Assembly: GCF_005166025.1 (NCBI RefSeq) | Contig: NZ_CP028923.1 | Span: 2,606,001-2,670,000 of the forward strand | Length of the DNA stretch: 64,000 nt | Direction of reading: 5' to 3' | DNA from: Mangrovivirga cuniculi | Lineage (GTDB): Bacteria; Bacteroidota; Bacteroidia; Cytophagales; Cyclobacteriaceae | In this document: piece by piece, positions 60,337 to 61,753 of the stretch | Numbering within the stretch: the first letter of the stretch is position 1 | Layout: every line of letters begins with the position of its first letter | Notes under the pieces: model-generated | What the model was told of the DNA's origin: nothing | Seen by the model: the letters and a program-made list of their open reading frames with translations, nothing else | Database searches by the model: none | Made by a program: the position numbers and the translations under genes

Positions 60337-60412
60337 TATCTGTTTTATAACAGATAATTATAAATATCTGTTTAATAGCAGATTAATTTGGATATATGCT
60401 CTAAAACAGATA
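60337..60412. promoter_or_regulatory. three palindromic operators spaced exactly 28 bp before satD
   Basis: Copies begin at 60337, 60365 and 60393. Copy 1 is perfect: TATCTGTT-TTAT-AACAGATA. Copy 2 TATCTGTT-TAAT-AGCAGATT matches at 6 of 8 arm positions in its right half. Copy 3 TATATGCT-CTAA-AACAGATA matches at 6 of 8 in its left half. A TTAATTTG box (60383-60390, 7 of 8 to TAnnTTTG) lies between copies 2 and 3, so bound protein would cover the promoter. The last copy ends 14 bases before the satD ATG. Confidence 0.75.
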
Positions 60413-60426
60413 TTTTAGGGTTAAAT

Positions 60427-61038
60427 ATGACAGGAATTATAACAGGAGATATAATCAGATCAGGAAGAGATTTATCAAATCCAAAGTGGCTTGAGATATT
60501 GAAAACTCAGCTTTCAACATTGAGTATTGATAATACTAGCTGGGATATTTATAGCGGTGACAGTTTCCAGCTAGAAGTAAATCCTGCAGATGGACTTACA
60601 ACAATGTTACTAATAAAATCCTTATTAATATTTAAAGCAGATATTAATGTAAGAATGGCTCTTGGAATTGGCGAAAAAGAGTATTCAGGCGATTCAATAT
60701 CAGAATCAAACGGAGAAGCATTTGTTTATTCGGGTCGGTTGCTTGATGAGTTAAAGACTGAAACTTTAGCTATCAGATCGAGTAATCAGGAATTTGATGA
60801 AACAATTAATCTAATGATTGACCTGGGTTTACTAACTATTGACAGATGGACACAAAACAGTGCTGAGGCCGTTTATTATTTTTTATCTAATGAAGTTGAA
60901 ACTCAAAAGCAATTAGCTGACAAACTAGGGATTAGTCAGGGACGAATAAGTGAGAGACTATCCAGAGCAGGATATGATCAAATCATAAAGCTAGATCATT
61001 ATTACAGAAAATACTTTAACCAAAATCTACATAATTAA
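60427..61038 (+). CDS. SatD-family protein with C-terminal helix-turn-helix
   Basis: About 203 residues. The start MTGIITGDIIRSG and the following NWDIYSGDSFQLEV-like region fit the SatD family (PF16264). The C-terminal QKQLADKLGISQGRISERLSRAGYD (~165-190) is a helix-turn-helix, making it the probable binder of the three palindromes upstream. I chose the ATG at 60427; an ATG at 60388 would lie inside operator copies. Stop and start overlap with the DUF3307 gene by one base (ATGA-type), and SatD-DUF3307 pairs recur in Bacteroidota and Firmicutes. Confidence 0.85.
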   Translation: MTGIITGDIIRSGRDLSNPKWLEILKTQLSTLSIDNTSWDIYSGDSFQLEVNPADGLTTMLLIKSLLIFKADINVRMALGIGEKEYSGDSISESNGEAFVYSGRLLDELKTETLAIRSSNQEFDETINLMIDLGLLTIDRWTQNSAEAVYYFLSNEVETQKQLADKLGISQGRISERLSRAGYDQIIKLDHYYRKYFNQNLHN

Positions 61039-61753
61039 TGACTTTATTTTTGTGGCTACTATCATCTCATTTTATTGGAGACTTTTTGTTGCAACCAAAA
61101 TCGTGGACAGTCCATAAATTTAATAAGAAGGTATTGTCATCAAGACTGTATTTTCATATTCTAATTCATGGTATTTTAACATCAGCAGTGTTATTTATTA
61201 ATTACACATATTGGTGGGTGCCTATAATGATTATGTTCACTCATTATTTGATTGATCTCGGAAAAATTTACTTGAATGAAATTATTAAGTCTCCCTCTTG
61301 TTTATAATTGATCAGCTTTTACACATTATAGTAATCGTTCTAATTACTTTTTATTTATATCCTGAAGTAATAAATTTTAATGCTGTTGAATTGAATTCCT
61401 TATTATTATTGACAACAGTAATTTTATTTATTTCAGTAGCAGGTGGTGTTATAGTAAAAGAATTAATAAAACCCTTCACTCCTGAGGCAAATTCAGATCC
61501 TAATGAATCTTTAAGCAATGCAGGTAAAATAATTGGAATACTTGAGCGATTATTTGTTTTTGTTTTTGTGGTAACCAATCATTGGGAAGGGATCGGGTTA
61601 TTAATAGCTGCTAAATCAATACTGAGATTCGGTGATCTAAAGGAAGCCCGGAGTCGTAAACTCACAGAATATGTTCTAATTGGAACCCTTATAAGCTTTG
61701 CTTTGGCATTTACTGGAGGGCTTTTATATAATTATTATTCAAACCTTATATAA
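61038..61753 (+). CDS. DUF3307 membrane protein (one-base frame break)
   Basis: A ~238-residue membrane protein: MTLFLWLLSSHFIGDFLLQPKSW opens it, with SSHFIGDFLLQ the DUF3307 hallmark, then HILIHGILTSAVLF, THYLIDLGKI and about five more helices, GIGLLIAAKSILRFGD near the end. The frame breaks at 61298-61299: one more T joins IKSPS to LFIIDQLLHI. Translationally coupled to satD. Role unknown; the pair is predicted to sense or protect the membrane, by context only. Confidence 0.88.

What the first reader, a model, noticed from the sequence alone, without database searches (positions are those of the whole stretch)
60337..60412. Three 20-bp palindromes at exact 28-bp intervals before satD-DUF3307
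Starts at 60337, 60365 and 60393; copy 1 is perfect, copies 2 and 3 each match at 6 of 8 positions in one arm pair. A -7-like box sits between copies 2 and 3. The first gene product ends in a helix-turn-helix. The set suggests cooperative autoregulation of an operon whose function is unknown. The even spacing is unlikely by chance.
Basis: partly seen in the sequence, partly recalled or inferred. Interest (0 to 1): 0.65.

Follow-up and report, generated by a model that had tools for sequence, protein, structure and literature searches.

The report
Self-matched operator lattice before satD-DUF3307
A two-gene bacterial cassette carries, right on its own promoter, evenly spaced copies of a DNA motif whose letters differ from species to species in step with the DNA-reading helix of the cassette's first protein, so that protein very probably switches its own genes.

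Summary
Three 20-bp palindromes at exact 28-bp steps precede satD; 0 of 5000 shuffles reach their lattice score. The same layout, with a 28- or 29-bp period, precedes 199 of 228 distinct satD genes, against 15 of 684 shuffles. It also occurs in Gammaproteobacteria (Kangiella, a Vibrio lentus plasmid). What is conserved is geometry, not letters: 6-bp half-sites in alternating orientation every 14 bp. The letters change with the protein. Of 203 SatD positions, the three that covary most with half-site bases 4-6 are 176, 173 and 172, all in the predicted recognition helix. A rule learned on 89 loci predicts new half-sites better than relatedness does (25 against 16 of 50). Best reading: SatD, a palm/cyclase-fold protein with a C-terminal HTH, represses its own satD-DUF3307 operon by covering the promoter; the -7 box lies in register in the spacer between palindromes, exactly so in 51 of 152 loci. 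SatD binding is strongly supported in silico; repression is likely; cooperativity, ligand and cassette function are inferred. My searches found no published account. DUF3307 is frameshifted in the window. New variant of a known kind (tandem-operator autorepressor).

The parts
60337..60356 (.). Operator palindrome 1, TATCTG-N8-CAGATA, perfect; half-sites 60337-60342 and 60351-60356
60365..60384 (.). Operator palindrome 2; half-sites 60365-60370 (TATCTG) and 60379-60384 (CAGATT)
   Evidence: 28 bp from copy 1
60393..60412 (.). Operator palindrome 3; half-sites 60393-60398 (TATATG) and 60407-60412 (CAGATA)
   Evidence: 28 bp from copy 2
60383..60390 (+). -7-like promoter box TTAATTTG (consensus TAnnTTTG, one mismatch); its TTTG is at lattice phase 22, in the spacer between palindromes 2 and 3
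   Evidence: sequence; the same phase holds 76 of the 125 TAnnTTTG boxes found in 152 homologous upstream regions; consensus from a passage of PMC7366714
60427..61038 (+). satD: palm/cyclase-fold domain (about residues 1-120) plus C-terminal HTH; predicted recognition helix 171-181 with specificity residues G172, R173, E176
61038..61307 (+). DUF3307 membrane protein, first part of a reading frame that is broken in this genome
   Evidence: PF11750 E 3.9e-16; intact at 238 aa in two sister genomes (L003, L004)
61298..61753 (+). DUF3307, remaining part in another frame

Best explanation
The array is the operator of an autoregulated two-gene cassette. SatD (palm/nucleotidyl-cyclase fold plus HTH) binds the 6-bp half-sites through its recognition helix, most likely as one dimer per 20-bp palindrome. 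Neighbouring dimers sit at a fixed 28-bp step, so that half-sites recur every 14 bp in alternating orientation. The -7 box lies in the spacer between palindromes and in many homologues shares its TA with the end of a half-site, so bound SatD would cover the promoter and repress satD-DUF3307. A signal, probably a nucleotide or a nucleotide-dependent state sensed by the palm domain, would release it and allow DUF3307, a polytopic membrane protein, to be made. Supported by sequence evidence: conserved geometry, residue-base covariation, promoter overlap, two-gene conservation. Inferred: repression rather than activation, dimers, cooperativity, the ligand, what DUF3307 does.
For: (1) Array at a period of 28 or 29 bp before 199 of 228 distinct satD genes against 15 of 684 shuffles; in the first set, period 28 with score 30 or more in 100 of 111 (three loci held twice) against 5 of 555 shuffles and 4 of 320 upstream regions of other ORFs in the same loci. 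(2) SatD positions 176, 173 and 172 rank first to third of 203 for covariation with half-site bases 4-6 (z 7.0, 6.4, 3.9 in 152 loci; the same three in 89 loci). (3) K/R176 goes with base 6 = C in 19 of 20 against 1 of 132 without K/R; S/T173 with base 5 = G in 55 of 61 against 7 of 91 (groupings chosen after seeing the data). (4) Out of sample, the residue rule gives the exact triplet in 25 of 50 new loci, the nearest relative 16, the commonest triplet 10. (5) 76 of 125 TAnnTTTG boxes fall at one lattice phase; at that place TTTG occurs 79 times and its reverse complement 6 times. (6) In the three Kangiella loci a sigma-70-like promoter (TTGATA, TTGACA or TTGACT, 17 bp, then TATATT or TATTTT) lies across the array instead (sequence, read by eye). 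(7) Within about 3 kb on either side, only SatD (80 of 80) and DUF3307 (79 of 80) are broadly conserved; the next family is in 23 of 80. (8) Arrays are found with 197 of 220 satD genes that have DUF3307 next door and 2 of 8 that do not.
Against: No binding or expression data. On supported branches there are only 2 to 7 independent pairs per tested residue group; on average the base never goes the opposite way, but no sign test reaches 0.05. In the smaller first set one further pairing (residue 172 = G with base 5 not G) went the other way in 0.1 of 2 pairs on average. The rule fails in 25 of 50 new loci, 12 of them because a residue was not in the training set. Some helix types are not consistent: SNE gives CTG 8 and CGG 5, STE gives CGT 7, CGG 2 and AGG 1. 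29 of 228 have no array at the threshold: nine with DUF3307 miss it by one or two points, but five loci of one family with 49-57% GC (L188-190, L194, L196) and others clearly lack one. Only 51 of 152 loci have an exact TAnnTTTG at the favoured phase. An activator bound to the same sites is not excluded.
Confidence: 0.82

Rival explanations
1. SatD binds the array but activates, or both activates and represses, its operon, with upstream palindromes recruiting polymerase.
For: In the window four of the six half-sites lie upstream of the -7-like box; copy number varies between loci (4 to 9 half-sites at the strict threshold); the -33 element could not be identified in Flavobacterium johnsoniae (passage of PMC7366714).
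Against: The favoured -7 position shares bases with a half-site, and the array's end lies on average closer to the start codon than the box (median -29.5 for the array end; -45 for the end of TTTG), as in repressors that cover a promoter. In Kangiella the -10 lies on a half-site (by eye).
Confidence: 0.12
2. The palindromes act as RNA hairpins (attenuator or riboswitch) in the leader.
For: Compensatory change between arms also suits RNA stems.
Against: In the window, and in the loci with the box at the favoured phase, copies upstream of the -7 box would not be transcribed; the spacing between palindromes is as fixed as the one inside them; half-site letters follow the protein's recognition helix. 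RNA folding was not run.
Confidence: 0.02
3. Another regulator or an architectural protein binds the array, and SatD merely travels with it.
For: No binding experiment exists.
Against: No third gene nearby is broadly conserved; the covarying residues are in SatD's own recognition helix; in this genome no second run of copies was found.
Confidence: 0.03
4. Chance, or repeat remnants of a mobile element or CRISPR-like array.
For: AT-rich sequence produces weak palindromes; 15 of 684 shuffles reach the threshold.
Against: Conserved 28/29-bp period with different letters in two phyla.
Confidence: 0.01

Closest known systems
RptR, autorepressor of a phage-defence island (PMC12255303; passages seen, part of the abstract among them)
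   Same: First gene of its operon; represses its own promoter through three evenly repeated palindromes overlapping the -10; repeat number varies among homologues (zero to five).
   Different: RptR sites are 6-bp palindromes (TAGCTA, four variants) inside 9-bp direct repeats; here half-sites sit 14 bp apart in a 28-bp lattice and their letters diverge widely with the helix. RptR subunits are alpha-helical; SatD carries a palm/cyclase-fold domain.
Class III nucleotidyl cyclases, GGDEF and other palm-fold domains (Ma1120, Rv1264, GTP cyclohydrolase III, Cas10/Cmr2)
   Same: Fold of SatD's N-terminal domain (Foldseek best 4wp9 E 3.6e-4; VIA Z 10.2, rmsd 2.9 over 110 residues to 2qv6); two conserved Asp in TGD and GD-x-F motifs.
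   Different: Positions where cyclases carry the catalytic Asn and Arg (by motif, recalled) are not conserved (100 mostly V/I; 104 most often E); fused to an HTH that appears to bind its own promoter. No activity known.
Transcription-factor families with helix/site covariation (LacI PMC2978694, GntR PMC4494728, IclR PMC8222616, MerR PMC5045206; search listing only)
   Same: Covariation between factor and site has been used to read recognition rules.
   Different: None of these listings names SatD or a 14-bp alternating half-site lattice; the papers were not opened.
Streptococcal SatD (secretion and acid tolerance; passages of PMC11323703)
   Same: Same family name.
   Different: No DUF3307 partner, array or DNA binding was tested here or mentioned in the passages seen; the window protein reaches PF16264 only at the cut-off.
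Proteins that coat repeated sites, such as TubR, ParR and BldC (recalled, not looked up)
   Same: Regularly repeated sites allow assembly along DNA.
   Different: SatD sites alternate in orientation every 14 bp; assembly by SatD is not shown.

Membership tests
SatD family (Pfam PF16264) | Score above the curated cut-off of 29 bits | tested here: met
   29.1 bits, just over, for the window protein; 27 bits, under the cut-off, in the six-frame genome search. 46 of 54 aligned homologues match at E 0.01 or better.
DUF3307 (Pfam PF11750) | Score above the curated cut-off of 23 bits | tested here: met
   First part in the window 59.7 bits, second part 16.8, under the cut-off; intact gene of the sister species 81.6 bits.
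Active class III nucleotidyl cyclase | Palm/cyclase fold | tested here: met
   AlphaFold2 model pLDDT 95.2; matches to cyclase, GGDEF and polymerase palm domains. A shared fold shows no activity.
Active class III nucleotidyl cyclase | Two metal-binding Asp | tested here: inconclusive
   D8 in 221 and D45 in 223 of 228 distinct proteins; their correspondence to metal ligands is by motif, not superposition.
Active class III nucleotidyl cyclase | Transition-state Asn and Arg | tested here: inconclusive
   Corresponding positions by motif: 100 is V in 84 and I in 83, 104 is E in 123 and R in 38 of 228; mapping by eye only. Filed as cyclase-like fold, not as a cyclase.
Autorepressor with tandem operators (RptR-like in working) | Regulator is first gene; repeated palindromes overlap its promoter | tested here: met
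   the promoter is predicted, not mapped.
Autorepressor with tandem operators (RptR-like in working) | The protein binds the repeats and represses | not testable with these tools
   Covariation supports binding; no assay available.
Known anti-phage defence system | Matches to known defence proteins | tested here: inconclusive
   No PADLOC match at E 0.01 for the window SatD or for SatD and DUF3307 of the sister species. Weak matches exist: 13 families among the 54 homologues, each in at most 6 members, best E 3.7e-05; the Vibrio lentus SatD matches a CARF model at E 0.0073.

The most novel reading that the evidence does not exclude
SatD-DUF3307 is a portable regulatory cassette in which a cyclase-fold nucleotide sensor assembles as a helical array on a half-site lattice (14-bp step, 1.33 turns; 28-bp period, 2.67 turns) laid over its own promoter. 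Repression would thus depend on assembly and on nucleotide state, and the lattice rewrites its letters along with the recognition helix whenever the cassette diverges or moves between phyla.
Probability: 0.3. Interest if true: 0.8.

Novelty: new variant of a known kind. Interest (0 to 1): 0.62.

Why it matters
It turns two protein families of unknown role (SatD, DUF3307) into a testable regulatory cassette with a predicted operator before most of its copies. It gives a natural protein-DNA recognition code with many different solutions (TATCTG, TATCGG, TATTAG, TATTCC, TATTAC, TATACG and others) at one fixed geometry, good for testing specificity prediction. The operator also gives a handle on the signal: whatever binds the cyclase-fold domain.

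Tried and rejected

Literature: a search for SatD or DUF3307 gave 319 papers of which the 30 listed were on other subjects as far as titles show; satD with the streptococcal sat/ffh genes gave 4 papers, DUF3307 one, 'SatD family protein' one. A search for a cyclase or palm domain together with an HTH autorepressor gave one review on CRISPR-Cas. A search on helix/operator covariation gave 18, of which 8 were listed, all on other families. No account of this array was found in these searches, which cover open-licence papers only.

Defence role: no PADLOC match for the window SatD or for the sister's SatD and DUF3307, weak ones in some homologues. DUF3307 matches a phage 'membrane protein' family, phrog_2470, but the sister's SatD and DUF3307 gave no tblastn match in annotated phages. 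Of four viral-contig homologues one has a 29-bp array (L252), three do not. Left open.

DUF3307 fold: no Foldseek match at E 0.001; VIA best Z 6.6; no function read from it. Solved structures by sequence: nothing better than E 0.1 for SatD.

First mutual-information step was invalid (correction over three columns only) and was redone over 14 columns; the spacer-column control is not informative, since the correction forces it negative.

The four of 320 control upstream regions that reach the threshold were not looked at.

Full report
What is there. Upstream of a two-gene operon at the right end of the window lie three 20-bp palindromes at 60337, 60365 and 60393. The first gene, 60427-61038, encodes a 203-residue protein that just reaches the Pfam SatD cut-off and has a C-terminal HTH. 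The second encodes DUF3307, here broken by a frame change. By the nearest relatives (Mangrovivirga halotolerans 86%, Marinigracilibium pacificum 61% identity) the window is from a Mangrovivirga-like bacterium of the Bacteroidota. In this genome the perfect palindrome and the run of copies occur only here; other places match singly with 2 or 3 mismatches. Shuffles of the upstream region do not produce the array (0 of 5000 at period 28).

It is a lattice, not just three palindromes. Each palindrome is a 6-bp half-site, 8 bp, and the inverted half-site; the next palindrome starts after another 8 bp. Half-sites therefore recur every 14 bp in alternating orientation. A scan that leaves both spacings free between 10 and 21 bp picks a total of 28 bp as best or tied best in 104 of 111 homologous upstream regions (111 includes three loci held twice). 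With score 30 or more at period 28: 100 of 111, against 5 of 555 shuffles and 4 of 320 upstream regions of other ORFs in the same loci. Over all loci fetched up to L251 (Bacteroidota genomes, with three Kangiella and one MAG labelled Chlorobiota), each distinct protein counted once, 199 of 228 have a period of 28 or 29 (171 and 28), against 15 of 684 shuffles. More distant homologues often use 29. Of five plasmid homologues, Vibrio lentus, Segatella copri and Pseudoalteromonas score 36, 36 and 32 at 28 bp; two Salinivibrio score 29, under the threshold. Three Kangiella genomes (Gammaproteobacteria) have it.

Letters change, geometry does not. Half-sites include TATCTG, TATCGG, TATCGT, TATTAG, TATTCC, TATTAC, TATAAC, TATATG and TATACG. 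In 152 distinct loci (score 30 or more in the fixed 14/14 register and half-site starting TA), arrays mostly start with a forward TAT half-site (118) and end with an inverted one (140), and 118 have an even number of half-sites (4, 6 or 8) at the strict threshold; so the whole 20-bp palindrome looks like the unit.

For 89 loci I asked which of the 203 SatD positions share most information with the half-site bases, correcting for background; 19 of 108 were dropped before the count (five without a 28-bp array or with another period, the rest with a score under 30 in the fixed register or a half-site not starting TA). The top three are E176, R173 and G172 (z 7.4, 6.4, 2.9). With 152 loci they are again first to third (z 7.0, 6.4, 3.9; also by raw information). 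They are spaced along the predicted recognition helix 171-181 like residues on one face. The rules read like chemistry: K or R at 176 goes with C at base 6, a G on the other strand (19 of 20, against 1 of 132); E, G, D, A or N at 176 with C at base 4 (87 of 96, against 5 of 56); S or T at 173 with G at base 5 (55 of 61, against 7 of 91). These groupings were chosen after seeing the data. Some helix types are nearly constant: SSE gives CGG in 15 of 17, NSG gives CGT in 12 of 12, GRE gives CTG in 11 of 11, AAR gives TAC in 9 of 9. Others are mixed: GNQ gives TAG in 13 of 17, SNE gives CTG in 8 and CGG in 5 of 13, STE gives CGT in 7 of 10.

Relatedness is a confounder, and I tested it three ways. 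Other SatD columns share the same history but score far lower. On a tree of the N-terminal domain, independent pairs on supported branches go the predicted way or do not differ, on average never the other way, but they are few (2 to 7 per residue group) and no sign test is significant; in the first, smaller set one pairing (172 = G with base 5 not G) went the other way in 0.1 of 2 pairs on average. On 50 loci not used for the rule and under 90% identical to the training set in the N-terminal domain, the rule gives the exact triplet in 25, the nearest relative by that domain in 16, the commonest triplet in 10; single bases right 104, 79 and 67 of 150. Twelve of the 25 failures have a residue the training set lacked; nine of these are the AAR type, which share one half-site, TATTAC.

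How the array meets the promoter. The Bacteroidota housekeeping -7 consensus is TAnnTTTG (passage of PMC7366714). In the upstream regions of the 152 loci, 76 of 125 such boxes lie at one lattice phase, in the spacer between palindromes, their TA being the end of a half-site. The half-site itself supplies that TA, so the fairer test is strand: at this place TTTG occurs 79 times and its reverse complement 6 times. An exact TAnnTTTG there is present in 51 of 152 loci; the window has TTAATTTG there, one mismatch. In the three Kangiella loci a sigma-70-like -35 and -10, 17 bp apart, straddle a half-site spacer instead, with the -10 on a half-site (sequence, read by eye). SatD on its sites would therefore sit on the promoter. 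Repression is my reading; activation is not excluded.

The protein. AlphaFold2 gives a confident model (pLDDT 95.2, pTM 0.92). Residues 1-120 have the palm fold of class III cyclases, GGDEF domains, Cas10 and Y-family polymerases. D8 and D45, in motifs that resemble the two metal ligands, are kept in 221 and 223 of 228 distinct proteins; positions 100 and 104, where cyclases have Asn and Arg (recalled), are not conserved. I infer a nucleotide-binding sensor more readily than an active cyclase. DUF3307 is predicted as nine helices with invariant His and Asp residues and no clear structural relative. Around the cassette, within about 3 kb on either side of 80 named loci, little else is conserved: SatD 80 of 80, DUF3307 79 of 80, next best family 23 of 80. 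The cassette's first gene is patchy: a match in 90 of 196 genomes of its own family and 92 of 395 sampled from the phylum at a stricter limit, and it is found on plasmids. The four of five plasmid stretches that carry annotation all have DUF3307 next door.

Geometry. With 10.5 bp per turn (recalled), 14 bp is 1.33 turns and 28 bp is 2.67, so successive palindromes do not face the same side; the lattice would wind the protein round the DNA. That is unlike the usual same-face spacing (recalled) and suggests, without showing it, a helical assembly.

Against. No experiment supports binding. 29 of 228 have no array at the threshold. Nine with DUF3307 are one or two points short (L049, L053, L064, L093, L096, L113, L134, L151, L243). 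Six have no DUF3307 in the stretch held (L002, L029, L173, L208, L210, L226). The remaining 14 have DUF3307 and score 20 to 26: L188, L189, L190, L194 and L196, from one family and with 49-57% GC against a median of 38% for the set, and L153, L175, L181, L184, L186, L198, L199, L235 and L244. SatD without DUF3307 next door mostly lacks arrays (6 of 8), the window genome's own paralogue L002 among them; L171 and L221 are the exceptions. Eight is few, and some of them are distant relatives.

Verdict. A real, widely conserved operator array that co-evolves with the DNA-reading helix of the first gene's product.

Noticed in passing
window 61038-61753: DUF3307 is split between two frames in this genome, with a one-base length difference against the intact sister gene near 61293 and both parts about 80% identical to it in DNA (200 of 255 and 371 of 460): a recent frameshift or a sequencing error.
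   Followed up: partly
   Followed up: no
L002 (own genome, C1:3496079-3496714, minus strand): A second, divergent SatD-like protein without DUF3307 next door and without an array; the same in sister genome locus L210.
   Followed up: partly
L074, L083, L136 (Kangiella) and L256 (Vibrio lentus plasmid): Gammaproteobacterial copies of the cassette; Kangiella's SatD is 42-45% identical to the window protein, which suggests transfer between phyla, and Vibrio lentus carries it on a plasmid typed as conjugative.
   Followed up: partly
L030 (order-level relative G111) upstream of satD: Five nearly identical palindromes CAGGGTTTTTACCCTG at 29-bp steps, more uniform than in other loci, perhaps a recent expansion.
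   Followed up: no
L061 DUF3307: DUF3307 matches phrog_2470, a phage 'membrane protein' labelled moron or host takeover (E 5e-13); a jumbo Ralstonia phage paper lists a DUF3307 protein (passage of PMC8504454).
   Followed up: no
literature, PMC11323703: Streptococcus pyogenes satD is reported as essential in the strains tested but present in only 178 of 249 genomes (passages), an odd combination for an accessory gene; no link to this array was tested.
   Followed up: no
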